From the NCBI GenBank assembly GCA_021432605.1, contig MU271157.1:62001-126000 (forward strand): a stretch of 64,000 nt of DNA. Reading direction: 5' to 3'. Numbering within the stretch: position 1 is the stretch's first letter; every line of letters begins with the position of its first letter. Of the stretch, positions 5,803 through 64,000 are shown piece after piece. The DNA comes from Coniochaeta sp. PMI_546 (taxonomy: Eukaryota; Ascomycota; Sordariomycetes; Coniochaetales; Coniochaetaceae). The notes beneath the pieces were generated by a model. The model searched no databases. It saw only the letters and a program-made list of their open reading frames with translations, and was not told the origin of the DNA. The translations under genes and the position numbers were made by a program.

Positions 5803-7423
5803 CGGCTGAGGTGCCGCAAGGTGGGAGATATCCTCAGGAGTGAATGAAATGCTGTGGACATACCTAACATGATACGGCTGCATTTGAAAACGGACATCAA
5901 AAGGGGTTGATATATAACGTGCATCTTCAAGGGCAACGGCTGGGTCAACTTTGGGCAGGCTAAGTTGACTACGAGGACCTGGCGAGGCCATGAGCATTGA
6001 TTTGCATTCGATTGGACATTGACGGATACCACATGACTTGGGAGATTTAATCGCATGTACGAAGTAATAGCATCAAAAATGCCACAAGTTTCCGTATTCG
6101 GACGCCGAAGGCAGTCGAGGCCTTGCGTAAGAGAATCCCTAGCATGGCCTTTTGTTTCGGTGGCAGAGATTGGAGGGTCGGTTGCGTTGCTCTGCTGGCG
6201 CCTGTTGTCGGTCGCCTGTTGAAATACTTGACACTTTGCCGCGCTGCTGGGCGATGGTTTTATTCAATGGTTCATCTTGAATCTTTAACATCATCCAGTC
6301 TCATGTTTTAATCTATGGTACCTTACAATATTCTAATTTGACACAGAATCACGAACATTCAAACCAACTGAAGCTCGTCGCAGCAACCGCGAACTGACGA
6401 CAGCACCTGGCAGCCTGCGGGCCCTGCGGAGCGGCGAACCTGAACCAGGGTAAGTAAAATCAAAGGGTCCACCTGAGCTGCTCACTGCAGCTTTGTGCTT
6501 GGCATTTGCAGCCTGCCGGGGACATCGTCGGCCCACAGTGGTAGTGGTAGTGTAATCACTGGGAATGAAGTAAGCGTGCATTACACCTGCATCACGCCGC
6601 AGAGGGTTCAGCCTGCTTCAACATCCATTGCGCCCAATTGCTTGCTCGCCTCCCCGAAGCTGCACACTTTAGGGCGTATTCGATCGACCCGACCAGGAAG
6701 CACGAGGCCAGCAAGGGCGGCTGCTCCCTTTTGGGCATTAGTGAGAGCTACCAGAGCTACCAACCGACGAAAGCTCAACCCCAGCCGCACTGGACCATCC
6801 TCGTCGTCCTCAAAAGAGGAGTACCACTTGAACTTGTACGGCTACTCGGTCTTCTTCCTTCCCTTTCTTCATTTGACGTTCTGGAGTCGAGCACTTCTGC
6901 GTATAGAGAGGCGCGCATCTTCAAGGGACTCGAGGAGCGCATCATCACAAAGCTGCTCTCCCTTACCAACACTCCAAGTCACACGACCCTCGAGAAGCCG
7001 TCATTTCAGACCTCGACAGTTGTCTGTCTCCTGTTCACCGCACACCAATTCATTGCCATCATTCACTGTTCATCTCTCAGATAACTCTCTGCTCTACTAT
7101 AAAGGGACGCCTCTGCTCGATCCTCTCTGTTGCGAACCAACGTTGCCCCTACCCCGAACGGCGACACATCTTTCTCCGGACAGCGAGCCGCCCGTTGAAC
7201 CATAACAACGTCTGTCGTCAAGACGAACATTGCGGTATATCCGACTATTTACATCGCTGTCCTTGCCCATCGACGCACCTCATTCCTAAGCGCCGGCTCA
7301 ACCACTGCGGTGTCGAGGCTACCCCAGCCTGTATCCAAAAACTTCAATCCAACTTTATCTGTCTCGCCTGGCAGGTGACTTTGCCTGCCCCGATAGTCGC
7401 AAACCATACCGCGAACATATCAG
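5803..7423. other. Intergenic region and probable 5' leader of the BLM10 gene
   Basis: No gene supported. From about 6,830 the sequence becomes C/T-rich with many short open frames (for example 6495-7205 plus, serine/proline-rich from pyrimidine-rich DNA), the usual look of a long fungal 5' untranslated leader. A GTAAGT-like donor near 6450 could begin a leader intron, but no acceptor can be chosen with certainty. Confidence 0.45.
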
Positions 7424-20612: not shown

Positions 20613-21059
20613 AGAAAGCCTCCGAGACACGCAGGCATCCTTAAAGCCCAGCCAGGAGCCTCGAGACTCGTTTCGCTCTCAAAACCACCTTGCTCCGCAC
20701 CCCAGCCCTTTCAGGAAGCGAAGCATCAATCATCATCAGCACATTTGCTGGCCCGAGGGACTTGACCACCACCCTTCCCATTGATGCACATTGGAACTGC
20801 ACATGAACTACGCCTCATATTAACTCGACACCATACCTGACCATCTTATTGTTCCCTCGGACAAGGGTGCATCTATTGTTTAATTCATTCTTTCTGGATT
20901 ATAATAATTTGGCCATCCCACGCCATCGCACTCTCAACTTTCCCCACACCACCACTTACACTTACACCGGTCCTCAACCTCAACCTCAACCTCAGCTCTT
21001 CCGACTACCCATCCTAGCTCTCACCACCACCACCACAACAACACAACAACAGAGCAAAC

Positions 21060-22310
21060 ATGGACTCATTATCAGGACTCAGCATGTCTGAGCTCAACGC
21101 GGCAGCACTCGAACAATTCGTGTACCAGCCCGTAAGCCGGACAATGATCACATACCTCGCCGAGGCCGCCTTCTCCGTCATCCAGTGCGACCCGAACATG
21201 ATGCCGCCCCCGGCAACCGAGACTCGGACCACCACCCCCAACTCACATCTCCCGCCAACACCACCACGGTCGCCGCTGCCAAGAGCCGTCCGCCACGACG
21301 ACGGCCCTCTACCTGGACTCGAGGAGTTCATCACCCAGCTCGTGGTATCATCCAACGTCCAGGTCCCGACGTTAATGTCCACCCTCGTCTACCTCAACCG
21401 CCTAAAGTCCCGCCTGCAACCCATGGCCAAGGGACTCCGGTGCACGACGCACCGCATCTTCCTGGCCTCCCTCATCCTCTCGGCCAAGTACCTGAACGAC
21501 AGCAGTCCCAAGAACAAGCACTGGGCCAGCTACAGCGTCATCCAGACCGAGGCCTACAACTTCGGCTTCAGCCGCACCGAGGTCAACCTGATGGAGAAGC
21601 AGCTCCTCTCCCTCCTCAGCTGGGACCTCAGGATAACCGAGTCCGACCTCTACCGCGAGCTGGAACCCTTCCTCGCCCCAATCCGCCAGGACATCGCGGA
21701 CCGCCACGTGCGCCGGCAGAGGCGCAAGGCCGAGGAGCGGGCCCGCCGCAAGCGCGAGGAGGCAGAGGCCTGGATCGCAGTGCACCAGCCCGCCAGCATC
21801 GCCCGGAAGGCAGTCCGCTACCCCACACCCCCTTCGTCGCGGGACGCCTCGCGCTCGCCCGTCCGCGACCTCTCGCCGCCGCCCCCGGCACTCAGCTACA
21901 GCTCCAGCACCTCCTCCTACGCCAGCAGCGTCACCTCCTCATCCTCCTCCTCATCGAGATTACAATCCCGCGCCGCCACACCGCTCTCGGACCCGGAAGT
22001 CGACGACCCAAAGCCATACGTGTACGACCCCGAGGCCGCGGCGGCGATGGTGTCGGGCCTCTACGACTCGCCGGTCGAGATCGTGGTCTCAGACAACAAC
22101 AGCAAGGCACCGCCCCAGGTGCCAGCCAAGGACGCCGGGATCTACGCGCACAAGAGAGGGGTTAGTGGTAGTCGTAGCCTGCTGCCCTACGAGATTAGCG
22201 CCGAGGAGCTGCGGGACATGCACGAGGTTGGTGGTAGGCAGGTGGCCAAGCGGGTGAGGGGGGTGTTTGGGCGGGTTTTCGGAGGCAATGGCGGGGTTGC
22301 TGTGCGATAG
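21060..22310 (+). CDS. PCL-type (Pho85-class) cyclin, G1/S-associated
   Basis: Single exon, 416 aa, ATG at 21060 ([20 protein letters not shown]). Residues about 85-205 form a cyclin box: [53 protein letters not shown] and [20 protein letters not shown] are typical cyclin helices of the PCL1/PCL2 / fission yeast Pas1 group. These bind a Pho85-class CDK and act in G1 progression and morphogenesis. The N-terminal block [18 protein letters not shown] is also characteristic. After the box come a basic, coiled segment rich in Arg/Glu ([21 protein letters not shown] begins about residue 219), then a Ser/Pro-rich disordered tail with possible CDK sites ([11 protein letters not shown]). No intron. 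It shares this window with CDK1, but PCL cyclins partner Pho85 rather than CDK1. Confidence 0.85.
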
Positions 22311-34017: not shown

Positions 34018-37000
34018 CTACCTCTGCCCATTCGCCTGTATCTGTTTAAAGATAGCATCCCGATAAGCAATCATCCCCGACGTGCGCGGGTGAAACGTCT
34101 TGACCTGGCGCGTGGGCGCATACCACGGCACGTCCTGGCTGTTAAAGTTGCCGCTCGAGAGGTCCGCGTTGGCGCGGCCGAAGCGCTGGGCCTCGGGCCC
34201 GTCGGGCGCGTCCCGCACCGTCTGCGCCAGGTTGCACATGGCCACTGCGTACGGGTCCGGGTTGGCGCCCAGCGTCGTGTTGCACGAGTTGGCGTCCGGC
34301 AGCGCGATGGGGCCCTGCGCGAACATGGCCTGCAGCTCCGCCGCCTCGGCCGCGGCGGCGTTCGGGTCGCCCGCGTCCGGCCACGCGCTGAGGAAGAACC
34401 ACGTGTCGCTGCGGGAGGAGTCGGGCTCGTGCACGCCTTCCTCGCACCATCGGTGCAGACCGTCGCTGAAGGCCGGCACGACGTCTACGAAGTGCACTTG
34501 GTTGCCGCCCTGGGCCGTGTTGGCGTCGGAGATGGCGTCTTGGATGACGCTGTTGAGCTGCCGCACTAGGTCGTCCAGCTCCTTGCGCAGGTCCCGGGTG
34601 AGGTAGACGATGCGGTTGAACGGCCAGTCGCTGGGCGGCTTGTACCCGCCGAACAGGTAGTGGAATGACGACTGGTCGCAGTCGGTTGTCTCCTCGTTGA
34701 AGAAGACGGGGTAGCCCGCCACGTACATGTTCAAGTCCCGGCGGCCGGACTTGCGCAGGATGCGCAGGTAGCCGTCCTTGAGCCGCGCGCGCAGGCCGTT
34801 GTCGCTCATGTCGTTCATGTGGTCTCGCGCCTTGTTCTCGGCGTCGACGCACCACTTGCGGTTGACAGACCCAAACGGCTGGGCTGTGTTAGGTGTAATG
34901 ACGCAGTAGTAGACGAGGTCCGCGAAGCCGAGGTCGTTGCCGCCCATAGTGAGCGTCGCCACAGTGACCTGCGCCGCGTTGCCCCAGGCGTCGATCTTGT
35001 TGTACAGGCCGTCGGTGGTATCTCCCGAGCACGACCGCCGCTCGTAGCTGATAGACTTGTCATTGAGCAATTGGTAGATCAGATCGCCGTAGTTGTTGGA
35101 GCCGACCCGACATTTGTCACCACTGGTGGTGCCTGTACCCATGCCGCTAGCATACGAGTCGCCGAAATGCGCATAGCCCGTGATACCACTGGCGCCTTCA
35201 TCGTTGCCGTCCCAGACAATGAAATCGTTGATGTAGGGGCAGGAGTTGGCCCGGGGCTTCGACTGATGGACGGCAAGCGTGCCGGGTTCGTGAAGGGTCT
35301 GATTAAGCCGGCGGCTGTCATGGGGATGGCGAGCCTCTTTAGGTGCTGTTATCGGTTCAAGTTTCCGCTTGCGAGTCTTCACTATAGCAACCGCCTCTGC
35401 CGCGAGAGCAGTGGTCTCTCTCTCCGCAGACTCGTTCACGGCAGCAGAATTTCTTGTCTGGGCTCGAGCTGCTAACGTGACCGGCTGAGGGTAGGGAATG
35501 GCCCGGTTACACTGCCTGCTGAAATAAACGCCAGCAGCAACATGCGAGTAAGTGTCGGCGTTCCTAGCACTCATGTCGCCGTTACAGAATCCCTCGCCAC
35601 CAGCCTGATTGGGGCAGATCGCGGGGGTGAATGTGCCATCACTTCGCTTCTTCAAACCGCCGTATGGGACGCAGGAGCGGTCAAATAGACCAAGAGGAAG
35701 ATTCGTACAGGACGTGTAGCCGTACGCGACATCAATAGAACTTTTCGTAATGATGTAGTCAGTTACTAGCAGCGAAAGGAGACCGGAAAGCTAGGAAAGG
35801 AGGAAGGAATGGAAGGAGGAGGCAAGTCGAAAAAAGCAGCACATACGGAGGACCATCACGCATAGTGTAGTAGGTGTGAGATGCTTCGTGCACGATAATG
35901 GCGGCTCTCGTAAACTGCGCATCACGGAGATTAATGGAGTTGCACTCGTTCAGGACTTCGTCCGAATTCTTGACCCTGGGGTCATTGAAGAACTTGGCAC
36001 AGAAGTTCATGATCTGTGTGCCATCGTTCATGGAGGCGTACCATCCTCTCTCCCAGCAGGCTTCTTTTGTCTCGTCACAGGACACCGAGAATGTATAGGT
36101 AGACGACCTGCCCGACAGCACTGTGCAAGAGGTCGTATGTCAGGACTTGAGTCACCTGGCTGGCCAAATGGAGGATAACTCACTGTCGGCCATGCGCCGG
36201 TAGGTCTCTGTAATATCTCCCGCAAAGCTGGCTTGATTCCGCAGGTTTTGCGAGAAGAAATGGTTGAAGTAGTCGCCCTCCTGGAGGTGATCGCGCGTGG
36301 CAAGTGCCATGTCGTAGGCGTTGGACATCTCGCGCCGTAGGATGACCTTCCACGCATTACTGCATGTGTTGTCGCTGAAGTTGATGGGCACCGACTGAGT
36401 GCACGGTGGAGGGCAGCTTTCATAGTATGGCAATCCAGGATCCGCTGCAAATGGTTGTCATTGTCAGCGATGAACAAGCAACTGGCCAGTCATCCAGTAG
36501 CAAGAAGGCGGAATAGTATGCTTGGGAGCGTCATCTTACTAATGGGACCGTCGTCTCCCCCAGCTGCTCCGCATTCATTGAAGTAAGTGTTTGCCTATGT
36601 CAACGTAAATAACAAGTCAGTCGGAATGGTTGGGACAATGTTGCAGCAAAGATAAGACATACTTCGTTGGTTGCAGGTACAACATGTACCAAGTCGGCTC
36701 GTCCTAAGCCACCCTGATTTGTAAAGTGCTGTGTATAAGAGTGTTAGCGAGCCGTGAAGACCATTGGAGACACGGGTTATCAGGAGACCGACAACCTACC
36801 ATAGTCTCGCCTCGGCTGATAGAGGCATAGAGTATCCCACGGTTGGTCCACTGGAACGAGCTGCCCCCAGGACCACCACCAACACCTTGGAATCCATTAT
36901 TGGTGTAAACTGTTCCCGCGCCTGTGTATTTGTTGAGCCAAATGATATCGGCCCGTCCCGACCTCTCCACGTCGGCGAAACGGAGGTTGGCACGGTCCCT

Positions 37001-40000
37001 ACAGTAGGCGCAAGTACCTGATTAGCTTTGCCATAAAAGTAGAGTCAATGGAGGTACATAGAATCGAACATCACGGGAAACTAACCATGCTTCTGCAAAC
37101 TTGATTTGCCCAACATTCATCAGACCAGACGCGCGATTGAGCCAGCCAGTGATACGTCCGGTTGTCTCGAGACATAGGATGTCCGCTCGTCCGTCGCCGC
37201 TATACGCTGATCAGTAATGTACTATGAATGTAGAAGAAGAATGTCATAGGAGATTCAAACCACAAGAGGACTGACTTCTGCGTCGGGGATGAGGCAACTC
37301 GGGACTGGACTTACTCGACATCTGCAAGGCGCATACCGCGGTCAAAGATTGACACACCCCATCCTTGAGTACACCCGGGGGAAGCGACAACTCCTCTATT
37401 GGCGAATGTGATGGACTTGGCCGCCTGGTCGTACTGGTTCTCGTACAGCGTCAAAGCGCCGCTCGCTTTATTCTGCACTAGAACATCGCATCTGCCATTT
37501 CCAGTCCAGTCGGCCAGGTGGATACCGACACGGGGCCCAGGTACGGAGAAAGAGATGCTTGTGTCGTGTCCCCAGTTCGGGGGCGAGTGTATGTTCGTGT
37601 TGATCTCGTCCACGTTTCCGGCGTCGTATATCCACACGAGGTCGTCCGAGCCAGTGCCGCGCATGTCACAGTAAAAGCTGCCGTCTCCCTTGCGCTTTGT
37701 ACCGCCTGAGCCAGTGTTCCTCCACACGCGCACATCATTCCACTCGTCTTCTTCGACGAGATAGATGTAGTCGAGACGGTTGGAACCAAGGATTTTCCCA
37801 AACTTGATTCGATTTTTCAGCCCAGACACAGCTTGGCCCACGTGTGTTAAGCCAGCTGAACGCCATTGGGGAACCTGTATGCGCGCATCGAGTTAACAGT
37901 GGTCCGTGTCGTGGGTGTGTACGACACCAGGGCGATGTCGAGCCTTACAATGGTATTCCCATCACCTCTTTGGTTGATCCAAGTCTGGACGCTGCCGGTG
38001 TCACTAACGTACATGAAATCGGCTCGGAAACTGGAAGTCAAGTGACATTGTCAGACAGTGCCATAACGGGGAGTAACGCTCGCAAAAGGCCATGTAACTC
38101 ACTCTCCATTGATATCGCCTGTTCGACATTTCCGAGAATTGATTAGCGCACAGGTCTGATGAATCCAAGGACATCTTCCGGATGTCCAATGTAGATGATG
38201 ATGACGGTAATAGAGGAACCTGAAAGCAGGGGGCAAACGGGTCTAAAGGAGAGCGGCTTTCCCAGTAGAGCAAGGGAGATGTACGTACCAAGAACCATTC
38301 TTGAAGGGTCCATCTTTTCGTCCCACCCAAACACAAGGTCTCTAATGGTGTTTCCCGCCTCAAAGCCTTGCCAGAAATGTTCATCCCCCTGACCGCCATT
38401 TCTGGAACACCTGCAAGAAAGAACATTCAGCATCAGGGGCAGTTCTGGGTCGATAGCCCACCGTTCGGTCACCATGAGGTACCTGCTTTAGTCTGAGAAC
38501 TTACTTGACGTTGTACGGAGTCAAGATACAGAAATCCGCCCTTCCATCTCCGTCGATATCTGTCGTAGTCAGTCAGCTACGCATAGCACAGGAGAAATCC
38601 CGGTGGGAGGTAGGTCATCGTCAACCGCCTTACCCGCGAATCGGAAATCTTGCTGGGTATAATCCCAAAACTCAGGTCCGGCGCCCCCGATAATCTGTTG
38701 ACACACAACCAATGTCAGTGGGACATGGAATTGACAACCTTAATTCCTCCAAGGAGATGCTGGTACTTGCCTGTCCCACATACTCGAATTGAGGCGGGTT
38801 GCCTGCTCGATTCAGGGAGAGCGTCACGGCACCATCGTACCTGAGACAAAAGAAGTCGTCTGCAAAGGATCAGTGGCCGACCAAACAATATCTGGTGGTG
38901 ACACCCCGACAAGCCTTACCTAGTCCGTCGCCGTTCTGCATATCAGGAGACGCTGTGGTTAGTCGACGGAAATGCATAAGCTGATGGTCAGGAACTGAGG
39001 AACCTACAAAGTCACCCCAGGTGTACCCGTCTGCTCGAAGCCAATCATTAGCAGCCGTTCTCAGTTGAGGAATCACAGGGGTGTCATATGCGACTATCCC
39101 GTTTCGCTACTTACGTGCGTCAGATCCCGGTTCACAGTGCTGATCAATGTCAAACTGCTGCGAGGTGTCGAACTCGCCATTGCCCTTGTTGCGGCGAACA
39201 TGCCAGAGCGTGTTGTATTCGCCGTTATTCCAGGCGCGAACCCAGTCGTCCAGCGCGTCTTTGCGCTGTGCGTTTGGATCAGTCTTGATGAGATTGGCGA
39301 AGAACATGCGGAAGGGGATGAGATCGTTGAGGCCAGGCGAGTCCCCCTTGTACTCGATTCGAGCACTGATGAGATTGCCAAGAGGCTCAGAGCTGTGAAC
39401 GTAGTTGCCGTCATCGTGCCCGCTTCCTTGTTGCGTCCTTATGGGTCCTCTCGCGGTACCTGCGACCTTTCTGCACGAATTGGCGCTGGTGGCATCATTG
39501 GGGCCGTCGGGCGAGGGCGGTTGAATGACATCTTCCAGCTTGCTGATGGCGTCCCACCACACAGCCGCAAACAACTTGTAGCCTTGGTCATTAGGGTGCG
39601 TGTCGTCGTGCAGAAGATCCAGGCCCATTGCGGAATTGATATCAGCGAGTCCAATCCTACGACCTGCAAATGAGTTTTCGACCAGGTCTCTGTCTGCTGA
39701 CTGACAAATGAAGCGCAGACATTGTTCTTGCCGCTGGGGACCAAAGTTGAGAGGATAACAGTTACGCCGTCAATACTGTCGAAAACCCCATTGATCATCG
39801 CCTTCATGTCTCGTGCAGCATTGGCTCCGTCACCTGTGTCGCCACAGTCGTTTCTAACTCATGTGTTAGCCTACCACATGTTGCCTCCCGTTAAAGCTTA
39901 CAAGGTACGAAAGGTATCCGTGCTGGCCACTTACGTTCCAGCGTTGATAAGGACGAGGTTTGGCTTCAGATAGGCCGACTTTTGAAACTGATTATAGACT

Positions 40001-40552
40001 GAATTGATGACATAGCCTGGCCATCCCTCGTTATCCTATTGCCCCAAGGCACCGAGTGCCCCTGGTGTCAGCCAGTGGACACATCTTGAACGTGCTCTAG
40101 GAGAATACAGGGGGTTGAGCACTAAAACTTACATTATCGGCCATCGCTCCGTTCCGCTTGGACCCAACCATGTTGACTTTCCAACCTTTCCAGCGCAGTT
40201 GCTGGCGCAGAGACTTTCGGTATCCAGTCTCGTCTGTCGAGCCTTGGCCCTGTGTGATGGACGCGCCGAGTGGCATTACCCGGAGATAAAAGTCTTTGGC
40301 AGCCCGGTTAACCAGAGTATTATCCCCAAGACTGGCATTGCCGTATTGATTAAGTGCAACATCCGGAAGGGTCCCTCCGTAAGGGGGAATGGTGTCTGAA
40401 AAGGAGTTGTCAAGGTACTCGACGTCAGGCAAGGGTGCTTCGGGGTCGGCTTTGGGGCGGTCCCAAGATACGGCGCCGACGAATTGGCTAGTGAAAGGGA
40501 TGATGCTCACTGTCACATGAGCAACAAACAAACTCCGCATCGTGAGCAGCAT
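34018..40552 (-). CDS. Four-module secreted protein: SGNH/CE3-like esterase, FG-GAP/VCBS repeats, aspzincin-like metallopeptidase, SGNH/SEST-like lipase
   Basis: About 19 exons on the minus strand: 40133-40552, 39935-40035, 39115-39853, 39008-39030, 38920-38935, 38771-38859, 38634-38694, 38505-38559, 38289-38410, 38103-38118, 37949-38030, 37315-37874, 37086-37199, 36800-36998, 36663-36728, 36540-36594, 36184-36444, 35847-36120 and 34018-about 35765; roughly 1,630 aa. Signal-like N-terminus (MLLTMRSLFVAHVTVSIIPF). Module 1: GASITQG (Ser98), INAGTNDCG and LLHDDTHPNDQGYKLFA, the SGNH catalytic blocks. Module 2: repeated Ca-binding motifs (NGDGLDDF, DIDGDGRADF, GDINGD, DGDGRADI, ERSGRADI), as in FG-GAP/VCBS propellers. 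Module 3: zinc motif IIVHEASHTYY, then TDYIITKSSIDVAYGY and ARNADTYSHVAAGVYF, aspzincin-like. Module 4: HFGDSYASGMG, TLTMGGNDLGF and TFHPRTSGM, an SGNH/SEST-type triad. Exon phases tie modules 2 and 3 together (GPITDPGLPYYESC). Two joins fail: near 39,694 a one-base slip (VSQQ then RDLVENSFAGRRIGLAD in another frame), and at the 35847/35765 intron the phases disagree. So the gene may be decaying, mis-sequenced or unusually spliced. Confidence 0.75.
38103..38118 (-). other. 16-nt microexon encoding a Ca-binding GDINGD motif
   Basis: Acceptor AACAG and donor GTGAGT enclose exactly 16 bases. They complete the Gly codon of the previous exon and begin the Asp codon of the next (VLG/DING/DFRADF). 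A second 16-nt microexon (38920-38935, NGDGL) does the same at another repeat. Confidence 0.75.
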
Positions 40553-45839: not shown

Positions 45840-46829
45840 TCACCCGACCAGGGACTTTATCGCAAACTCAACCTCGTCCTGATTGCCACAGAGCAGTCCT
45901 CCACGTTCGTCCTCATTCTCCACTGCCCGCGCCAGAATATCCTTCCCGTCAACCGGATCAACAGCCCTGCCCCCAGCACATTCAATGATGAGAGCAATTG
46001 GACAGAGCTCATACAGTCGCCGCAGCTTGGCCCCCTTGCCGCCCACAACAGGTGATATGTACACACCATGACCTTTCACGAGCATGTGTATCACATCCGG
46101 CACCAGGCCACCACTGTAGCGAAGCGTGTACTTCTCCTTGATAAAGTGCGTGATCAGGCCCATATACCTCTCGTCATCCGCCGCAGCACGAAGGTTGGCA
46201 GGGGCGAAGTAGCGGGTCGCGTATGGAGGCGGCGACAGTTTGACCTCGGAACGGACAAGGGAGACAGCCAGTGGGACGCCTGGAGACAAGCCTACTTCAA
46301 AAATTGCCGGCCTGCTCCCTGGAACGCGGAGAGCGACTACTGCCGTTGTTCTCGGGCCCAAGACGCCCAGTATCGCCGCGATCTGTTTTGAGGCGGGGGC
46401 TTGACCGAGCGCCGTCGCCCCTTCCCAGATGCCGATGATGGTGCCCACGGTCCAGTTCGGAGCGATGATGGAGCTGCCGTCGAGAGGATCGAAGGCGATC
46501 GTATACTTCTCTGTGGAGCTGGATGTTTTTGGTGGCTCTGAAAGGCGCTCGACCGGGTCTTCCTCGCTGCTCGCCGCCACGATGGAAGGGCAGTTTGCAA
46601 TGGCAGAGCGCATGATGCTCTCAGCCGCCACGTCAACATTCAGTTGGTCATCGCCAAAGGCGTTGGAGGTGCCGACTTGTGATACTTGGTGTGCCTCCTG
46701 GAGAACCCTGGCGACACCGGCGATGCCCTCTATCAGAGTTGGGATGACGGACTCCCGTAGCTCAGTATGATCTGGCGATGGGAGCAAAGCCTTCAACTGA
46801 TCTTCCAGACCAACTTGAGGGGAACTCAT
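45840..46829 (-). CDS. Sedoheptulose-1,7-/fructose-1,6-bisphosphatase family enzyme (SBPase-like)
   Basis: Single exon, 329 aa; ATG at 46829 (MSSPQVGLEDQLKALLPSPD). The frame stays open upstream, but only from non-ATG codons. Family motifs: AFGDDQLNVDVAAE (metal/phosphate region), ASSEED at residues 87-91, and the class-1 signature IAFDPLDGSSI at about 111-121 (Asp114, Asp117 and Ser119-120). Also VGTIIGIW, GVLGPRTTAVVAL, RYSGGLVPDVIHML and the closing GGRAVDPVDGKDIL. The EED and GPRTT arrangement is nearer to plant/cytosolic SBPases than to yeast gluconeogenic FBP1, so I favour an SBPase-like assignment; a role in non-oxidative pentose phosphate/riboneogenic flux is inference. No transit peptide visible, so cytosolic. 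Intronless, unlike most neighbours. Confidence 0.86.
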   Translation of the reverse strand: MSSPQVGLEDQLKALLPSPDHTELRESVIPTLIEGIAGVARVLQEAHQVSQVGTSNAFGDDQLNVDVAAESIMRSAIANCPSIVAASSEEDPVERLSEPPKTSSSTEKYTIAFDPLDGSSIIAPNWTVGTIIGIWEGATALGQAPASKQIAAILGVLGPRTTAVVALRVPGSRPAIFEVGLSPGVPLAVSLVRSEVKLSPPPYATRYFAPANLRAAADDERYMGLITHFIKEKYTLRYSGGLVPDVIHMLVKGHGVYISPVVGGKGAKLRRLYELCPIALIIECAGGRAVDPVDGKDILARAVENEDERGGLLCGNQDEVEFAIKSLVG

Positions 46830-48017
46830 TCTGTTGTGTGCGTCTGAGCCCTCAAGCGTGTCTTCAGTGCGATGTATCCTCGTTCTCGTGCTCCTGCTGG
46901 AAGCCGAACAATATTGGTGATACAACGGTCGCGCTGCGATGGAGAAGAACTGGCGCCGGCCTACCTATCATAAAACCGTCAACACACAGTATGACTCGGA
47001 TAGAAACAGAATAACATACTTTCTGTATAGTTTCGCCTTACTCTTGACCTTGGAGGGAAAACACGTGGTTGAGGGAAGACCAGAAGACGTTGCCAAAAAT
47101 GGGTCATTTTCGCTATTTAATGTGGGTCTTGAGCGATTTCCCTACCTTAGCACACGCCGTCTCTTCCAGCTTTCTTCACAACAACATCAAGGAAGCGACA
47201 AGACCCAGTCGACACGCCATTCCAGGTAATAGTAGCATTCTAAGACGCTGAAATCATCTCGATGATTGCCACGGCAGCCGGTACATCTCCTGCTGCCAAC
47301 TCATCTCCTGCAGTGGCTTTTCTCGCAACTCCGCTGCCTCATGGTCAGGCACAATGTTTATCTGACGAAATCGGGCATGTCATCCAGTTCGCACCACCAT
47401 AGCCAAGTCGACATGTACCCGCTGCGAGCTACTTGAACAGAATCTTGTGCCTCGACGGTCTTGACGGAGAGTAGGGAAGATCTGCTAGGCATGATCCCAG
47501 CAAGGTCTTCGGCTGTTAGGCACTAGGCACATATATATATATATATATATATTGTCGCTGGTGGCTCGCGACGGTATCATTCTATCTCGTGTTAACTTCT
47601 CTACTGATGCTCCGAAGTGCAAGCTGGTACAACACAAGTTTATCGCTTCAAAACAAGTGTTTGATGTTGATGATAGCTGTTGTCTCTTAGGTGATGTTTC
47701 TTTCCGTTCATCAAAGCACGAGGACGATGGTCAGTCGAAAGCTCGAGTTATCGACCGATTTCCTGTCTTCCGTTGAAATCGTTAGTGAATGAGTGGCATA
47801 AACCTACAAACAATCTGGATCAACGACCAACACAGAAATGGGGTGGGCACGTCGTGGTACGTAGGTTCGAGGCAGAGTTCTCCGATGCACAACCACTCAT
47901 CACTATGTACAGATTCCTAACAACATCTCAGCTAGTAGCAGCATAACTATGTGCAGTGTCAATATAAACAGTGAAGATTCAAGTCACCCCTTTTCACACC
48001 TCCGAGCCATCGGTCCC
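46830..48017. other. Intergenic region with an AT microsatellite
   Basis: Holds the bisphosphatase promoter, an (AT)11 tract at 47531-47552 and the 3' flank of the acetylxylan esterase gene. No supported gene; the plus-strand frame 47949-48323 is an antisense shadow of the esterase CBM. Confidence 0.55.
47531..47552. repeat. AT dinucleotide microsatellite
   Basis: Perfect (AT)11. Confidence 0.95.
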
Positions 48018-54218: not shown

Positions 54219-56681
54219 TTAACTAGACGGGACAGCAGCAAGTATGCTCCATAAGTGGTCCTTCGTCCCATTGTCTTCGAACTGAACAACATTGGCGCTA
54301 TTGGCCGTCGACATACCGTCCACCCCAGCCACAAGCCCGCTGTTCTTATTCTGGATCAGAAACAGACCGTCCTTGTTGGACTTCACTCGCCAGAGATGGT
54401 CGTCCGTTCCGCTGTCCTGATATTGCTGAAGATGCGCACTATTGGCCTGTGAGGCCCCTTCTACCGCCAGCAGGAGTCCACTGTTGAGATTTCTAATCTT
54501 GAACCATCCACCAGTCGCCTTCACAAACTCCCAGAGATGATCACGAGTGCCGTTATCATCGTACTGCTGGATGTTGGCGCTGTTGGCTTTTGATGCGTTC
54601 TCGACGCCCATGAGTTTGCCGCTGTTTTCGTTCCGGAGCTGGAATATTGCAGCGGTCCAGACCTCGAACTCTGAAAGACCCCATCCTGTTCCGCCACCGG
54701 CGTTGGGCGCAACGACTCGTAGCTGTGAGGTGGTGATCGTTGAAAAGGTGATTTGGGTCTGCGTGTTTGATGTCGAGGCCGCTGCGCTCCGCTGTTGGCC
54801 GGGGACCGTAGTCCAGGTGTTACCGGCCAGGTACTGGAGGTCATATCGCGAGGGAAGTCTAACACCGCCGCCATCGTCGTAAAAGTACAAATGGACGTTA
54901 GAGACTGCCTGCGGCCGTCGAAAGTCTACGCCAAAGTAATCTTGCGAATTTGGGCTATTGTACGAGGTCCATCGGCTGTTCTGGGGAACAGCGTTGCGGA
55001 AGACAATGCCGTCGATCGCATTCCACACATTGTCAACTGGCGAGGTATAGGACGCAAAAGGCGTTGTTCCCTGTGAGAATCTTTGACTGTTGGCTGCGAT
55101 GTTAACCTGAGAACTGATAGCTTGGCTGATTGGGCGGCCGACATTGACGGTCAGCACACCCAGCGTGTCGCGGTTGCCAGCGAGGTTTCCGTCCACGAAA
55201 ACTCTTAATCCGGTGCCCTGTCCGTAACGCTGGCCGGTCCTGTCCCATAAAACTGTCACAGTATGCCCATGGTACGCAACGTTCTCCAAGGCGAAGTAGT
55301 CCCAAGAGGACGGTATCAGAGGGTTGACCTTCAATGTATCATCTGCTTGCCCGCGCAAGCCGAGGAGGCCCGCAATGATATTATCGATAAAGGTAGAATG
55401 GTTGTAATCCTCACTATGATTGAAGGAATCATACAGCCAGCGATCTGCGTCGGGATCGTGAGCCTCGGCAATATAGGGCTTGCCATTCTTATGCTGTGTG
55501 GCAGCGTAGCCGAGAAGAAGACCGAAATAGTCGGCCGCGGATATGTATGATTGAGCTGGATAATCGTGTAGCACGTTTTCCACTGCGTTGAGGGTCTGAG
55601 AAGTGGCAAACGGCCATGATGGACCATTCCATTGGAGGCAATTAGCGCTCTGGTTCATAAACCATGGACTTCGTCGCTCCGCTGTAGTAGGACCGTAAGC
55701 AGAGGCAAAGCCCTGCGGATCCTTCAGCTGGGCAAAAGCAGCGATATTAGATGCTTGCGGCATGTTAAACATCCATGGTACATAACCCATGATCTCACGT
55801 GTAGTAAGGAGCTGCCCTGAAGGGTTGTTATCACGCGCCCGGTGCATGAAGAATTGGCGCTGGCTATCCCACAGATATTTCTGGAGGGCACTCTGTAGGG
55901 CGTCGGCCCGTCCCGAGTACTCGCTGGCTAGGGCATTCTGACCATTCAAGGCGGCGAGAGATGCGATAGCCCGTGCATCTCCATACTGGTAGGCGTTGAT
56001 CGTCGGTCTGTACCCATCGCCACCGTGATACGGGTCGCTCGACTCGTAGGAAGCAGCTGTGCATTCGGTAGCGTCCCAGACAGGGACCTGCCAATAAAGC
56101 CCAAGGTCCGCGTTGAAGTGATTGTCCCAGCCACGATATTGTTTGACAAGATTGTCCAGCTGACCAACCGCGAATTCTCGATCCCCAGTGACGAGGTACT
56201 GACGCCACACAGCGCTAGCTGCCCAGAAACTGTACTCATGCGCCCAGTCAGAGGTATCAGTGTTGACATCTTCGGTTTGCGGCTTGCTAAACTGCCCTGG
56301 ACCAGCTAGCCAGTAATTGACGACGTCCTTACCGTAATTCTGGTTCCGTAGCCATCGCCCTTCGTTGATATGGTGTCCCGCTGCGGCTACAACGCCCCCA
56401 TACGGCGCGCCATAGCTGACTGGCTGCAGAAACTCGCTGGATAGATAGCCATACTGGCTACTTGTGTAGGTGAGATGTTCTTTGTAGGTTTGACAACGGT
56501 AGTAGTAGACTTCCTGGATCTGCTGGTTGGGAACCTCAAGGAAGGGGATATTCTGCTCATACCAATCAGGATCCTCGAACCCAGCTAGGAGCTGACCGTG
56601 ATTCAAGAAGTTGGTGGCTGTAGAACGGCCCAAGACAGTGACAGTGGCGATGCCAATGAGTCGCACTCTGCAAGTCTTCAT
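54219..56681 (-). CDS. Secreted (alpha/alpha)6-barrel glycosidase (MGH1/GH63-like) with discoidin-like and ricin-type lectin domains
   Basis: Single uninterrupted frame of 820 aa, ATG at 56681. The N-terminus MKTCRVRLIGIATVTVLGRS may be a signal peptide. Residues about 50-440 resemble the catalytic (alpha/alpha)6 barrel of GH63/mannosylglycerate-hydrolase-like enzymes: EVYYYRCQTYKEHL, DWAHEYSFWAASAVWRQYLV, GYVPWMF, NGPSWPFATSQTLNAVENVL and DYNHSTFIDNIIAGLLGLRG. A beta-domain follows (LKVNPLIPSSWDYFALENVA). Residues about 550-660 resemble a discoidin/F5-8C carbohydrate-binding domain (VHLYFYDDGGGVRLPSRYDL to GWGLSEFEVWT). Residues about 665-815 form a ricin-type beta-trefoil with three repeats (IFQLRNENSGKLMGVENAS, FKIRNLNSGLLLAVEGASQA, FLIQNKNSGLVAGVDGMSTA), each ending in DHLW. 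Predicted extracellular glycan hydrolase; substrate unknown. No intron in 2.46 kb, unlike most neighbours. Confidence 0.85.
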   Translation of the reverse strand: MKTCRVRLIGIATVTVLGRSTATNFLNHGQLLAGFEDPDWYEQNIPFLEVPNQQIQEVYYYRCQTYKEHLTYTSSQYGYLSSEFLQPVSYGAPYGGVVAAAGHHINEGRWLRNQNYGKDVVNYWLAGPGQFSKPQTEDVNTDTSDWAHEYSFWAASAVWRQYLVTGDREFAVGQLDNLVKQYRGWDNHFNADLGLYWQVPVWDATECTAASYESSDPYHGGDGYRPTINAYQYGDARAIASLAALNGQNALASEYSGRADALQSALQKYLWDSQRQFFMHRARDNNPSGQLLTTREIMGYVPWMFNMPQASNIAAFAQLKDPQGFASAYGPTTAERRSPWFMNQSANCLQWNGPSWPFATSQTLNAVENVLHDYPAQSYISAADYFGLLLGYAATQHKNGKPYIAEAHDPDADRWLYDSFNHSEDYNHSTFIDNIIAGLLGLRGQADDTLKVNPLIPSSWDYFALENVAYHGHTVTVLWDRTGQRYGQGTGLRVFVDGNLAGNRDTLGVLTVNVGRPISQAISSQVNIAANSQRFSQGTTPFASYTSPVDNVWNAIDGIVFRNAVPQNSRWTSYNSPNSQDYFGVDFRRPQAVSNVHLYFYDDGGGVRLPSRYDLQYLAGNTWTTVPGQQRSAAASTSNTQTQITFSTITTSQLRVVAPNAGGGTGWGLSEFEVWTAAIFQLRNENSGKLMGVENASKANSANIQQYDDNGTRDHLWEFVKATGGWFKIRNLNSGLLLAVEGASQANSAHLQQYQDSGTDDHLWRVKSNKDGLFLIQNKNSGLVAGVDGMSTANSANVVQFEDNGTKDHLWSILAAVPSS

Positions 56682-57534
56682 CTTTCGTCCTGCTGCTATG
56701 AGGCAGACTCAGGTGCCGCGACCTCCGGGGAGGCAACGTGCCGTGATGACCGTGTCATCATATATGGACCGCGTCCCAGGGACGGTGTCTCTCGGCCAAA
56801 TAAAACCTGCCAAAATCAAGGTAGTCTCCGGGCTCATCACACCTTCCAGTATAAGGTATATCGGGAGTGCGGGGCTCGTTTTCAATTGTGTAAGAATACG
56901 CCTTAAGCGACTTGTAAGGTGACACCAGGTAACTAAATAGCTGCAGTGAGACTCAGGCCACCTAGCAGTGCGGTATATGCGATTGGATGCGGCCTCTGAG
57001 TCCCACTATGGAGCAGGCATACACGCATATACCACTATAAGGTGTGCTGGGCACCCCGGACCAAGTCCAACCGTCCGAATGCTTGAGGCCGGATCTTCGT
57101 AGAAGGATTCGCTTCGGATATCTAGAATATATGCAGAGAAATGCTTACCGCAAGTTGGTACGAGTCACCATCGGCTGCCATGACTTTCCATCCGGCGCCC
57201 AGCCGTAGTAAGAGCTCTGAAGACTAGAGATCGTACATTGCGATGGACAGGCCCAGACTGAGCGTTGAAGTTGCTGTAGCTGTATTAACCGTTACTGTTG
57301 AAGGCACAGTAATTGCGTAGCATGCGACCAAGATCGCGCATAGGACCTCGTTTGAAAGTGTTCGGTAGTCATGGCATTGCGAGTCTCGGTCCCTACTGTT
57401 GAACTATTTTGCAATTGCCAAACGCTGTCTCGACCATTAGTAAACCACTTGTTTATTAGCAGCAAGCTTGGCCTTGAATCACCGATAGATAGGGGTCTGC
57501 AAAATTACGAAGAGTGGCAGCCACACTTCTAGCT
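56682..57534. other. Intergenic region
   Basis: Glycosidase promoter on the left and transporter 3' flank on the right; plus-strand frames at 56598-56922 run antisense into the glycosidase start. Nothing else seen. Confidence 0.5.
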
Positions 57535-60043: not shown

Positions 60044-63000
60044 TCACCGCAATGGCAGCTCTGCCTGGAATTTCAAGCCATTTTTAACAATCGATAAGTC
60101 GCCATGCAAGCAAAACACGACATCATCGTCGCAGGTTATTGCCGGAAGGATCTCATCTGTACGGCGTGTGAGCTCTCCTGGCACGAAGAAATGTCTGGTA
60201 TACTGCGAGTATTCTTGCGGGTTGTCGTTGTTCAACTCGACAGACGATATCCAGGAGTCCGCATGGAGGAAAATGGCGCGCTTGCCATTGCTGGACATGC
60301 CAATGAAGCGATCGCATTCGCTGGGCAACATATGTGCAAATGGCTGAAGGGTCATATTGCCGAGATCCCATCCAGACTGAGATAATTCTTCGGGTGTCCT
60401 GAAGAAGTACAGCTTTGAACTGGAGACGTGGCTAGCTTGGTGGCGGACGGCCAGCAGTAGAGTTTGCGCTTTGCGGACAAATGTCGCCGAGTCAAAACTA
60501 GTCGGCGCGCATCCATCTCCTGAATTATACTCGAGTGTAATGATGCTGCTAAACATACTTTCAACCGTTAAGGACGGGAAATTTGGCGCCGAGTACCGTT
60601 GGAGCTGAGAATTGTCCACCAGCATAAACTCATCAAATTTGCTTGGGCCGTCCGGTGTGAGCCACCTCCAAGCGCACCGGTCCTCGTGAGTGAAGACTCG
60701 TGAACCGACAACCTCACCGTCCTGTGCCAAATAGACATGATCAGATTCAGTCGTTGACACGAGAAGGAACTTCCCGGATGGACTAAAAAGTAGTTGCCGA
60801 ATTGGGGCGTGCAGCCGCATCGAGGCTGCCATGGTTCTGACTCGGACTGCCGTTTGGTCTTTGAGATCCAAGCTCCATACCTGGACGAAGGAATTGACAT
60901 CGCACGATGCAATCAAATCTGTGTTGCTGGTGGCGATCTCCTTCACATAGGCCTGATGTGGATGCCTATATAGTATTGTGCCCTTGACACCCGTCTTTGA
61001 ATAATAAGCAAGAACTCCACCTTGATTGTTGGAGGAGAAAACAATCGGAAGACTTCGGTGAGCATGGATAGCCGTAATCTTCGCACCTCGCACACTTTCG
61101 TACTTGCCCTCGACGACGGCGAGGGCCGAATGATCAATCTCGCTGGTGCTAGCTTCCTCGTCAATTGTCTTGCGTACTAGCGTAGCCGGTGACCATATGC
61201 GCATGTCAGAGTCGGTCACATCGATGATATTTGCTCCATCGGATGTAAAAGTAAGAGACCGAAAGGAGAGAGCCGGCGTTTGCACCTGGTACAGAGGTGT
61301 AAGGGATTCGAAGTCTAATACGCGTAAGGTGCCTCGCACATCGACGGTGGCGAGTGTGTTACCGTTCGGTGAGCAAGCGATGGAAGCATAATTGTTGTGC
61401 TTCCCCGGGTTCGGATCGAAGTACTGGATCAGAGATCCGGACCACGAGTCAAATAAGCCCAAGGGAGAACCGCCATATGCGACAAGGACTAGCGAGACGT
61501 TCGGGTTCGGGTTGAAAAGTACGTGGTTCGCAACTCCATTGTTTTCATCCATGGCCCAGCCAATGAACACCTTTTGCTTGAAGTCCCATAGGCAAACCGG
61601 GCCGGTGCGATAGCCTAGTGCAAGCACTTCCATGTCCGGTGACATAGAGACGAAACCGGGAGCCCGGAACGGGACAGTTCGATAATCAACGCCTTGGGCG
61701 TCCTCTAGGTCCGGCTGTTGATAGGGATAATTGTGCTGTTCAAGCAGCTTTCCAGTTGTTAAATCCCATGTCAGGCCTCTCCCGCCCTCTGTAATGCCTA
61801 TGAGCTCCGTAGACGTCGACGCAAGGAAAAGGCACCGAGACCGCAATCGCGTCTCCCAAATGACCTCTCCCTTGCGACTCCATAGCGTCAGGAACTTGTT
61901 GCTGCATCCAGCCACGTAACCGGCGGGTTCCACGAAATGAAGTAAATCTATTGGATACTTTGTCAAGATTGTGCTTTCGTGCTGGAAACTCCGGTGATGA
62001 AAGAGGACAACGTCGCCACATTCCATCCCGACCGCGAGTTGGGTGACACCGCAAGCGACGGCAGAGGCTGTTCGGTCTTTGAAATCGATCGTGGCAATAC
62101 AGTCATCCCAGTCCGTTGTTTTGGCTCCTAGCAGGGCCAACCCGTCCGGACTCCTCCCGAATGACTTAAATACCACAGTATTGGTTGGGCAGAGAGGCGG
62201 AATGAGGAAATATATGGACGATGGGGAAGCCAATAAGGCCTTCCCAAACTTGGTCGCTAGCCTGCTCAGGCTCACTGACCACCCTTCGACTGTCTTGGCC
62301 TGCAATTGTTGATTCAGTGGTGAAACGTGTTTAGCTCGTCGTTCCAAAAATGCTGTGAGATCCTTCGCCGCCCGAATCAAGCCATGCAGATCGCCCCTGG
62401 TGGCTTGGAGATCTATCCATGTCATGATATTTGACCTGAAGAAGCGATCAAGTTCTATGAGTATCCTGGCAGACTCTGACGGAGCACCATGCACGTGCTC
62501 GGAGAAGTGCGACATAGCGTACTTTAGTAATCCTTCCGAGACATGCCTCTTATCCGTAAGAAAACGGCGGTGACGCGGCGGAGCAAGGGCGCGACTGCAC
62601 AGAAGTTGGAGGCACGTCAATGCGATAAGTTCATGTGCTGCAGCCCTCGTGACCTGGAACTCTCCAGCGGAGCTTGACAGGATGAACTCGCGGGCAGTTG
62701 CGTGCACAATGTGGACCAAGTCTGTTTGTTTGTCGATGTAGACAAGCTGCCCGCAGAGAACCTCTATAGCGGCGGAAATGCTTGGAAAACTAGTTTGGGT
62801 TTCCAAGTCGAGGGCTTGCGACAGGTCAAGAGTGCTAAGTGGGCGAGCTGCTGAAACAACCCAGCGGAGTATGACCTTGGATATATGCTTCTCGCGCTCG
62901 TTCTCGGCCATCTTAGCCACTATTCTTTCGTAGTAAGGCGTCATTCCTTTCGGTATGCCAGCCAGGACCTCTGTCATGCTCTTCGTAGCGGTTAACATCC

Positions 63001-64000
63001 GCAGCTCGTCCATAACAAGACGAACCCAGAGGAAAGAGCCGCTTGACTTGGCTAAGATTTGTTGCATTAGATCAGCCTTCTCGAAAGCTGATTCGACGAC
63101 CAACTCAGTCATTCGGCTTGAGATATACCGTTCGATGTCCTCCATAGTGTTGTTGATGGGTATGTCAACTGTTGTGAGCTGTGACTGGAATGGAACAAGA
63201 AGTCGACGAATTTCGGGGTATTTGCGGCTTGTTAGAAATATTTGGAGAGGGAACTTGGGTTTGTCTGCTTTCAGGAGAGTGAAGAGCTCGTTGTACTTCA
63301 GGCATTCGTCGACGGCATCGATGACCCAATATTGTGCATTAAAAACGGAAGCCTGGAGTCAGGTATTGATTAGCTAGAGCAAGGGACCAACAATCGACAA
63401 AACGCTTGCCTCACCTGGAATATACAACCTCTGAATATTTTGGCCCAGATGGTCCGGCTGTCGTCCTGATCAAATGTGAGGCCGTCTTGATAAGCTCGAA
63501 GAAGCATTGCTCGAATTGAGGCGTCGGACGTAGCCATTTGGTACGCGATGGACCTCAAGAAGCCCCCCAATGTCCGATTCTCCATGTGGAAATAGTAACT
63601 GGAGCACTGCAGCCTGTGTTCCTTCAAGTGGGAGACAACATGTCCCGCTAGTACTGTCTTGCCCGTGCCGGGATTAGCACTCACCCAGTAGAGCGCAGGG
63701 TCACGACGTCCATCTTTCGTGGACATGTCAGTAATGGAATCTCTCCAGTCCCTGAAGTCTTCGCGCTCGTTGATCCACTCGCAAGATCCTTCGACCTTGT
63801 CACAAAAGTCGTCTGGCTGCCCCGGTACCCCTAGGACGGCTCGAAGTATTCGAAGATGTTCCCGGGCCTCATTCTGCTTCTTCAGCACAACTTGATCCTG
63901 TCAGTGAGAAATACTGATAATTGTCATAATAATATTGAAACTCATACCACTGCGTAGCAAATCATCGATTGCCGACCCCAGACTATCTCGAAGTTTGATA
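60044..64000 (-). CDS. NACHT-WD40 STAND (NOD-like) receptor, N-terminus beyond the window
   Basis: Exons on the minus strand: 60044-63352, 63415-63897 and a partial one from about 63948 to the window edge; at least 1,260 aa present. NACHT domain: Walker A in WVSANPGTGKTVLAGHVV and Walker B in QYWVIDAVDECLKYNELF (joined across the 62-base intron with donor GTGAGG), then FLTSRKYPEIRRLL. Winged-helix-like region LRWVVSAARPLSTLDLSQAL and LVHIVHATAREFI. The C-terminal half (about 650 residues) is a degenerate WD40-like propeller (VSMSPDMEVLALGYRTGPVC, ASIACSPNGNTLATVDVRGT, RQLLFSPSGKFLLVSTTESD). Such STAND proteins mediate fungal nonself recognition and cell-death signalling; the N-terminal effector domain lies outside. 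The join to the edge exon is uncertain: LRDSLGSAIDDLLRS looks right but is one base out of phase with the next exon. Confidence 0.87.

What the first reader, a model, noticed from the sequence alone, without database searches (positions are those of the whole stretch)
34018..40552. One gene joins two different SGNH hydrolases, an FG-GAP/VCBS propeller and an aspzincin-like metallopeptidase
Exon phases connect all modules on one strand without room for promoters between them. The join GPITDPGLPYYESC ties the propeller to the peptidase, and the last exon carries both the end of the peptidase and the whole second lipase. Having two unrelated SGNH triads (GASITQG/HDDTHP and GDSYASG/GGND/HPRTSG) flank a propeller and a zinc peptidase is a striking architecture for a secreted fungal protein. 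It suggests one molecule that binds a surface, cleaves an ester and cleaves protein.
Basis: partly seen in the sequence, partly recalled or inferred. Interest (0 to 1): 0.82.

Follow-up and report, generated by a model that had tools for sequence, protein, structure and literature searches.

The report
Fungal four-module secreted hydrolase gene
One fungal gene appears to encode a large secreted protein that strings together two esterase modules, a propeller scaffold and a zinc-peptidase module, an unusual combination of ordinary enzyme families, though the first esterase's reading frame looks interrupted in this sequence.

Summary
A hand-curated spliced model on the minus strand, 40552..34018, has 20 exons and 1,636 aa. 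An automatic splice-aware score is 226.6 on this strand, 13.4 on the other and at most 19.9 in 30 shuffles. Pfam finds two GDSL/SGNH stretches, FG-GAP repeats and Aspzincin_M35 above its cut-off.

One gene fits best. SGNH1's end and the first FG-GAP repeat share exon 4. The peptidase end and SGNH2 share exon 20. The only intron between modules is 95 bp, and no convincing separate start with a signal peptide was found.

Two corrections. SGNH1's frame changes at about 39770-39685, bridged only by a poor intron that removes a segment its relatives keep, so SGNH1 may be broken or misassembled. SGNH2 resembles Streptomyces Ser-His dyad enzymes, not triads.

Parallels exist. SGNH plus FG-GAP is found in actinobacteria, and one bacterial protein of 42 checked carries two different SGNH modules plus FG-GAP. 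None of 39 related ORFs has HExxH. No fungal collection was available, so conservation and novelty in fungi are untested. Moderate interest.

The parts
34018..40552 (-). whole gene model, 20 exons, 1,636 aa
   Evidence: curated model; automatic spliced-ORF score 226.6 versus a maximum of 19.9 in 30 shuffles
40472..40552 (-). N-terminal hydrophobic segment, likely signal peptide (about aa 1-27)
   Evidence: most hydrophobic 15-residue stretch of the protein starts at aa 8; cleavage site inferred by eye, no signal-peptide predictor run
39515..40288 (-). SGNH1, CE3-like esterase module, about aa 89-265 (GAS Ser98, Gly147, Asn175, Asp235/His238); exons 1-4
   Evidence: Pfam Lipase_GDSL_2; PDB 2vpt E 3e-10; motif positions; alignment
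39685..39770 (-). frame discontinuity inside SGNH1; doubtful intron 3 (39765..39701)
   Evidence: coding signal moves from one frame to another; the model lacks 25 alignment columns that three relatives have
36540..39280 (-). FG-GAP propeller, about aa 344-884, nine FG-GAP-type loops plus one degenerate loop counted by eye; exons 4-17
   Evidence: Pfam FG-GAP_3 8.6e-25, 5 stretches; repeat starting in exon 4; loop motifs
36445..36539 (-). intron 17 (95 bp), between propeller and peptidase; joins ...GDDGPI to TDPGLPYYESC...
   Evidence: search for alternative starts
35494..36444 (-). aspzincin (M35)-like zinc peptidase module, about aa 885-1145 (HEASH 1049, DVAYG 1066, NADTY 1123); exons 18-20
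   Evidence: Pfam Aspzincin_M35 32.8 and 34.4 bits, cut-off 30; motifs
35194..35493 (-). linker, about aa 1146-1245, rich in Ala, Arg, Pro, Thr, Glu, with basic pairs at aa 1187 (KTRKRKLE) and 1206 (SRRL)
   Evidence: continuous open frame within exon 20, coding signal positive
34021..35193 (-). SGNH2, lipase/phospholipase-like module, about aa 1246-1636 (GDSYASG Ser1258, SCSGD, GGND, HPRTSG His1613)
   Evidence: PDB 4hyq phospholipase A1 E 3.4e-10; Lipase_GDSL 24.7 bits, cut-off 23.6
34018..35740 (-). exon 20, carries peptidase end, linker and SGNH2
   Evidence: no Met codon between aa 1119 and aa 1263

Best explanation
A single fungal gene encodes a secreted, modular hydrolase: signal peptide, CE3-like SGNH esterase, FG-GAP propeller, aspzincin-like zinc peptidase, flexible charged linker, and an SGNH lipase/phospholipase-like module. 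Most likely the propeller is a metal-stabilised scaffold or binding platform that holds the peptidase, and the upstream esterase if it is intact, at an extracellular polymer or cell surface. The second lipase hangs on a flexible tether, so ester and peptide bonds in the same material are cut together. Shown: the modules, their order, and continuity at sequence level. Inferred: secretion, calcium binding, catalysis, substrate and joint action. The first esterase may be inactive in this sequence because its frame is interrupted.
For: Gene model and motifs. Automatic spliced-ORF score far above 30 shuffles. Pfam hits for all module types. PDB relatives 2vpt and 4hyq, 5mal. SGNH1 end and first FG-GAP repeat share exon 4, peptidase end and SGNH2 share exon 20. 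No Met codon between aa 1119 and aa 1263, so no start inside the linker. Six in-phase single-exon alternative starts for the peptidase were enumerated (ATG in 37400-36445, donors GTA/GTG only); all need introns of 407-911 bp and one has a hydrophobic start. The model frame scores best of three in 39 of 41 40-codon windows; exceptions are the windows from aa 801 and aa 841. Bacterial proteins carry the SGNH-FG-GAP pair, and one carries two SGNH modules plus FG-GAP.
Against: No transcript data and no fungal homologue could be examined. SGNH1 has a frame discontinuity. In-frame Met codons at aa 924 and 930 lie just before the Pfam aspzincin match (937-1077), and Met 1119 lies before the linker, so a shorter, leaderless product is possible in principle; alternative spliced starts for SGNH2 were not enumerated. 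The aspzincin score is only just above cut-off, and no convincing PDB sequence match supports it (best E 0.098, to a hydroxynitrile lyase). Structure prediction of exon 20 from the single sequence failed (mean pLDDT 31.9). GC3 rises from about 0.59 to 0.91 in the second part of SGNH2, which could hint at a separate history, although peaks of 0.97-0.98 also occur in two of ten other window ORFs.
Confidence: 0.6

Rival explanations
1. Two adjacent genes: an SGNH1-propeller gene ending near intron 17 and a peptidase-SGNH2 gene starting after it; the single ORF is a modelling artefact.
For: Intron 17 is the one module boundary that is not inside an exon. Reading through intron 17 reaches a stop soon. 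In-frame Met codons at aa 924 and 930 lie before the Pfam aspzincin match. No transcript evidence.
Against: The gap is 95 bp and splice sites and phase fit. A start at aa 924 or 930 would have no signal peptide. Of six in-phase spliced starts the only hydrophobic one (ATG 36897) needs a 407-bp intron with donor GTGGAC.
Confidence: 0.12
2. Decaying gene: the first esterase is frameshifted, so the locus is a pseudogene or yields a truncated protein and the modular enzyme is no longer made here.
For: Frame change at about 39770-39685 without a good intron; a segment kept by three relatives is lost in the only spliced bridge. Two large conserved ORFs nearby read without a break (proteasome activator 7397-13366, FBPase 45846-46964), which argues against poor sequence quality in general.
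Against: The 1,433 codons after the break stay open with coding bias across 17 exons, which old decay would have eroded. A single assembly error is equally possible.
Confidence: 0.2
3. Polyprotein: one secreted precursor is cut at basic sites in the linker (and perhaps elsewhere) by a Kex2-type protease, releasing the lipase from the scaffold-peptidase.
For: Basic pairs KTRKRKLE (aa 1187) and SRRL (aa 1206) lie in the linker between two modules.
Against: Two of 11 KR/RR sites fall in the linker; by length alone P is about 0.14. Kex2 specificity is recalled, not tested.
Confidence: 0.08

Closest known systems
Spongiactinospora sp. TRM90649 protein in L008 (815-5404, 1,530 aa)
   Same: Two different SGNH modules plus FG-GAP repeats in one protein: an N-terminal one with GDSYISG and GGND (GDSL_2 38.1 bits, cut-off 32.9), a CE3-like one (aa 699-886) and FG-GAP_3. 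SGNH2 matches the L008 protein at 24% identity over 202 aa (L008 aa 465-627, the end of its N-terminal module), E 3.3e-5 in a 42-protein set.
   Different: Order is SGNH-SGNH-propeller; no HExxH; no aspzincin hit in the whole ORF (E up to 1e-4) or in the two flanking pieces (E up to 0.1).
Actinobacterial SGNH (CE3-like)-FG-GAP proteins, e.g. Streptomyces clavuligerus WP_009999315.1
   Same: A CE3-like SGNH module followed by FG-GAP repeats; tblastn covers aa 7-677 of a 792-aa query at 24.4% identity, E 7e-18.
   Different: None of 39 related ORFs from genome contigs has HExxH; no aspzincin hit in the three plasmid proteins scanned.
CE3 esterases (CtCes3-1, PDB 2vpt)
   Same: SGNH1 block residues; best PDB hit, E 3e-10. 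The name CtCes3-1 for 2VPT is from a passage of PMC9487903.
   Different: Here GAS in place of GDS, fused to other modules, and interrupted in frame.
Aspzincin / M35 deuterolysin peptidases (PF14521)
   Same: HExxH and a downstream DxxYG, plus an NADxY stretch.
   Different: The GT of the published GTXDXXYG motif (PMC3938660, one passage) is absent: the sequence reads PSIDVAYG. The module is internal to a large protein.
Streptomyces SGNH phospholipase A1 (4hyq) and lipase (5mal)
   Same: GDSY(A/S)SG, GGND and the N-terminal half; E 3.4e-10 and 3.5e-5; no Asp at -3 of the His, as in the dyad enzymes (PMC10779480, passages).
   Different: Larger, tethered to a peptidase; the C-terminal His region did not align in the PDB search.

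Membership tests
CE3 / GDSL-2 SGNH esterase (SGNH1) | profile match and SGNH block residues | tested here: met
   Lipase_GDSL_2 43.3 bits, cut-off 32.9, on aa 1-203; block residues aligned with 3 Streptomyces proteins
CE3 / GDSL-2 SGNH esterase (SGNH1) | uninterrupted SGNH module in one reading frame | tested here: not met
   frame discontinuity about 39770-39685; the model lacks 25 alignment columns that all 3 relatives have. Not filed as a working CE3 enzyme
FG-GAP/VCBS beta-propeller | several FG-GAP repeats above cut-off | tested here: met
   FG-GAP_3 87.6 bits, cut-off 26.9, 5 stretches
FG-GAP/VCBS beta-propeller | closed propeller fold and calcium binding | not testable with these tools
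Aspzincin M35 | profile match above cut-off | tested here: met
   32.8 bits (whole protein) and 34.4 bits (module alone, first letters mistyped), cut-off 30
Aspzincin M35 | HExxH plus GTXDXXYG third ligand | tested here: inconclusive
   HEASH and DVAYG present, GT absent (motif from PMC3938660)
SaPLA1/SrL-type SGNH (SGNH2) | sequence similarity, GDS nucleophile, GGND | tested here: met
   4hyq E 3.4e-10; motifs
SaPLA1/SrL-type SGNH (SGNH2) | catalytic His without a block V acid (dyad) | tested here: inconclusive
   QVKTFHP has no Asp at -3 (sequence), but that region did not align to 4hyq. Dyad described in PMC10779480 (passages) and, for SsEst, PMC9487903 (passage)
SaPLA1/SrL-type SGNH (SGNH2) | esterase/phospholipase activity | not testable with these tools
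   needs assay
Tc toxin B subunit (weak hit only) | TcdB_toxin_midN profile above cut-off | tested here: not met
   21.8 bits, cut-off 24.8, no stretch passing on its own; best explained by generic FG-GAP loops, since 13 of 39 bacterial relatives hit it too

The most novel reading that the evidence does not exclude
A previously undescribed fungal secreted polyenzyme in which one propeller carries a peptidase and one or two esterases, possibly released as separate enzymes by cleavage of the basic linker: a single-gene, fixed-ratio secreted hydrolase set, assembled from module types that some actinobacteria also join.
Probability: 0.12. Interest if true: 0.58.

Novelty: new variant of a known kind. 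Interest (0 to 1): 0.36.

Why it matters
If the full architecture is expressed, it is a natural example of coupling protein cleavage and ester cleavage on one secreted scaffold in a fungus, a eukaryotic parallel to actinobacterial SGNH-FG-GAP proteins, one of which also carries two SGNH modules. It would give a direct test of whether FG-GAP propellers act as docking platforms for secreted enzymes. A gene with 20 exons, some of 16 bp, and a GC-AG intron is also easy to split in automatic annotation (inference).

Tried and rejected
Foreign origin of SGNH2 from its GC3 (0.91 in its second part): no conclusion drawn, because two of ten other window ORFs have GC3 peaks of 0.97-0.98.

Separate starts for the peptidase or SGNH2: none convincing. 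Leaderless starts at in-frame Met codons (aa 924, 930, 1119) are not excluded. Alternative spliced starts for SGNH2 were not enumerated.

Bacterial protein with the peptidase joined to SGNH-FG-GAP: not seen. Plasmids gave no match to the peptidase at E 0.1. 0 of 39 related ORFs have HExxH. PF14521 was found in 0 of 6 genomes of relatives and in 1 of 396 genomes of the phylum of one relative; in neither search did any of the 14 control genomes ring, so absence is not shown. The one hit, L046, has Aspzincin_M35 at 140.1 bits with Ig-like domains and no FG-GAP hit up to E 0.1.

Viral contigs: SGNH2 and peptidase queries found no relative; the SGNH1-propeller alignment found three loci, not examined further. 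Phages: none for SGNH2. Plasmids for SGNH2: 7 records, actinobacteria, partial cover, no place covering 80%. Structure prediction of exon 20 from the single sequence was useless (mean pLDDT 31.9), so no fold search was run. NCBIfam gave only a weak acetylxylan esterase hit for SGNH1, 26.3 bits against a cut-off of 700, and none for the other two queries.

Literature, one open-licence library only. No paper held all terms of 'FG-GAP'+'SGNH'+'fungal', 'FG-GAP'+'GDSL'+'fungi'+'secreted', 'SGNH hydrolase'+'FG-GAP' or 'metallo-endopeptidase'+'FG-GAP'. 'FG-GAP'+'fungal'+'esterase' gave 3 papers, seen as passages, none describing this architecture in those passages; 'FG-GAP'+'acetylxylan esterase' gave 1 of the same. 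Searches were seen as listings; from them PMC12924839 and PMC3938660 and PMC10779480 and PMC9487903 were searched for terms. In PMC12924839 the terms architecture, multidomain, SGNH, FG-GAP, VCBS and fusion do not occur.
Full report
Gene model. The minus strand from 40552 to 34018 was modelled first by a splice-aware dynamic programme and then by hand from three-frame translations. The curated result has 20 exons (16 to 1,723 bp) and 19 introns (60 to 170 bp); one intron is GC-AG (38770..38695, GCAAGT...ACAG), the others GT-AG. The protein has 1,636 aa. The programme with a free start scores 226.6 on the gene strand (1,617 codons; its path differs from the curated model at several introns and runs past 34018), 13.4 on the other strand, and at most 19.9 (mean 7.2) in 30 dinucleotide shuffles. 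In 39 of 41 windows of 40 codons the curated frame has the best codon score of the three; the exceptions start at aa 801 and aa 841. The codon scores were trained on long ORFs of the same window.

Modules. Pfam on the whole model: FG-GAP_3 8.6e-25 in 5 stretches; Lipase_GDSL_2 1.2e-17 in 2 stretches; Lipase_GDSL 4e-11 in 2 stretches; Aspzincin_M35 1.1e-7, 32.8 bits, cut-off 30. A TcdB midN hit is below cut-off and is what generic FG-GAP loops give: 13 of 39 bacterial relatives show it too, and a PDB search of the propeller gave weak YenB hits at E 0.027. Scanned alone, the upstream part of SGNH1 scores 43.3 bits (cut-off 32.9), the peptidase 34.4 bits (cut-off 30), and SGNH2 32.3 bits for Lipase_GDSL_2 (cut-off 32.9, just below) and 24.7 for Lipase_GDSL (cut-off 23.6, above). 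PDB sequence search: SGNH1 hits 2vpt at 3e-10; SGNH2 hits phospholipase A1 4hyq at 3.4e-10 and lipase 5mal at 3.5e-5; the peptidase has no convincing hit (best E 0.098).

One gene or several. SGNH1's end and the first FG-GAP repeat share exon 4: in a 180-aa piece covering the boundary Pfam finds two FG-GAP_3 stretches, the best beginning at about aa 355, before the exon's end at aa 398. The peptidase end, the linker and SGNH2 share exon 20. Only intron 17 (95 bp) separates two modules. Enumerating single ATG exons upstream (37400-36445, donors GTA or GTG) that could splice in phase to exon 18 gave six candidates; all need introns of 407-911 bp, two have 7-base first exons, and one has a hydrophobic start, with donor GTGGAC. 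Between aa 1119 and aa 1263 there is no Met codon, so no start lies in the linker. In-frame Met codons inside the peptidase (aa 924, 930, 1119 and others) leave leaderless shorter products possible in principle. The most hydrophobic 15-residue stretch of the protein is at aa 8, which fits one signal peptide.

Correction 1, the first esterase. Three-frame translation and codon scores show the coding frame changing between about 39770 and 39685. The segment VTVILSTLVPSGKNN lies in one frame and by eye matches a stretch that three Streptomyces relatives have where the model has a 25-column gap; the continuation to DDTHP lies in another frame. The model bridges this with a 65-bp stop-free intron whose donor is GTAACT. 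I therefore do not claim a working SGNH1. It may be an assembly error, a recent break or an unusual splice.

Correction 2, the second lipase. SGNH2 has GDSYASG, GGND and HPRTSG but no Asp three residues before the His. Passages of PMC10779480 describe Ser-His dyads in SaPLA1 and SrL and no third charged residue in SsEst; a passage of PMC9487903 says the same of SsEst. SGNH2 is best seen as that kind, though its His region did not align to 4hyq. BLASTP finds no significant similarity between the upstream part of SGNH1 and SGNH2.

Relatives. In plasmid records the SGNH1-propeller part matches 24 records, 20 of them Streptomyces, with the best place in each under 60% identity; 16 of the 20 rows shown are S. 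clavuligerus. Three such proteins scanned by Pfam have GDSL plus FG-GAP (3 of 3). Of their 39 ORFs, taken in the frame of the match start, 34 match GDSL_2, 20 match FG-GAP_3 and none contains HExxH. Of nine scanned one by one, six have GDSL plus FG-GAP and three have trypsin plus FG-GAP without GDSL. In those three (L011, L018, L028) an ORF with a PLGDSIT motif starts next to or overlaps the end of the trypsin-FG-GAP ORF, so peptidase-FG-GAP and SGNH genes are neighbours there.

A bacterial two-SGNH parallel. The L008 protein (1,530 aa) has two GDSL_2 stretches. Its N-terminal 689 aa alone score 38.1 bits, cut-off 32.9, and carry GDSYISG and GGND. This is 1 of 42 proteins with a GDSYxSG motif. 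SGNH2 matches L008 at E 3.3e-5 (24% over 202 aa), the best of that set; the 13 other rows are E 0.024 or weaker. So two different SGNH modules with a propeller are not unique to this gene; the added aspzincin and the order are what set it apart among what I could search.

The peptidase in bacteria. PF14521 was found in 0 of 6 genomes of relatives and in 1 of 396 genomes of the phylum drawn, with the caution that no control genome rang; the one hit (L046) has no FG-GAP match.

Composition. GC3 is about 0.59 in SGNH1 and the propeller and 0.907 in the second part of SGNH2, but two of ten other ORFs in the window have peaks of 0.97-0.98, so I draw no conclusion about origin.

Mechanism and scores. 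The most likely reading is a secreted, scaffolded hydrolase with a peptidase and a tethered lipase, and possibly a second esterase. Gene unity I put near 0.85; secretion about 0.85; SGNH2 catalysis about 0.7; peptidase catalysis about 0.65; SGNH1 catalysis about 0.35. These are judgements, not computed values. No fungal collection was available, so the architecture may be common in fungi. Hence 'new variant of a known kind' and moderate interest.

Noticed in passing
39685-39770: Frame discontinuity inside the first esterase module, bridged only by a doubtful stop-free 65-bp intron.
   Followed up: partly
38695-38770: A GC-AG intron (GCAAGT donor) and, in the same gene, two 16-bp exons (38935..38920, 38118..38103).
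   Followed up: no
L008 815-5404: Spongiactinospora protein with two different SGNH modules and FG-GAP repeats.
   Followed up: partly
L011, L018, L028: Streptomyces proteins joining trypsin and FG-GAP repeats, each next to or overlapping an ORF with a PLGDSIT SGNH motif.
   Followed up: partly
54225-56708: ORF (minus strand) joining an MGH1-like glycoside hydrolase, F5/8 type C and ricin-B lectin domains; another modular enzyme.
   Followed up: no
60050-63358: ORF (minus strand) with NPHP3-like, winged-helix and WD40/beta-propeller matches, of fungal NLR-like build (label recalled).
   Followed up: no
7397-13366: Proteasome activator PSME4/Blm10 ORF with GC3 rising to 0.98 near its 3' end; a cyclin ORF at 21018-22304 also peaks at 0.97.
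   Followed up: no
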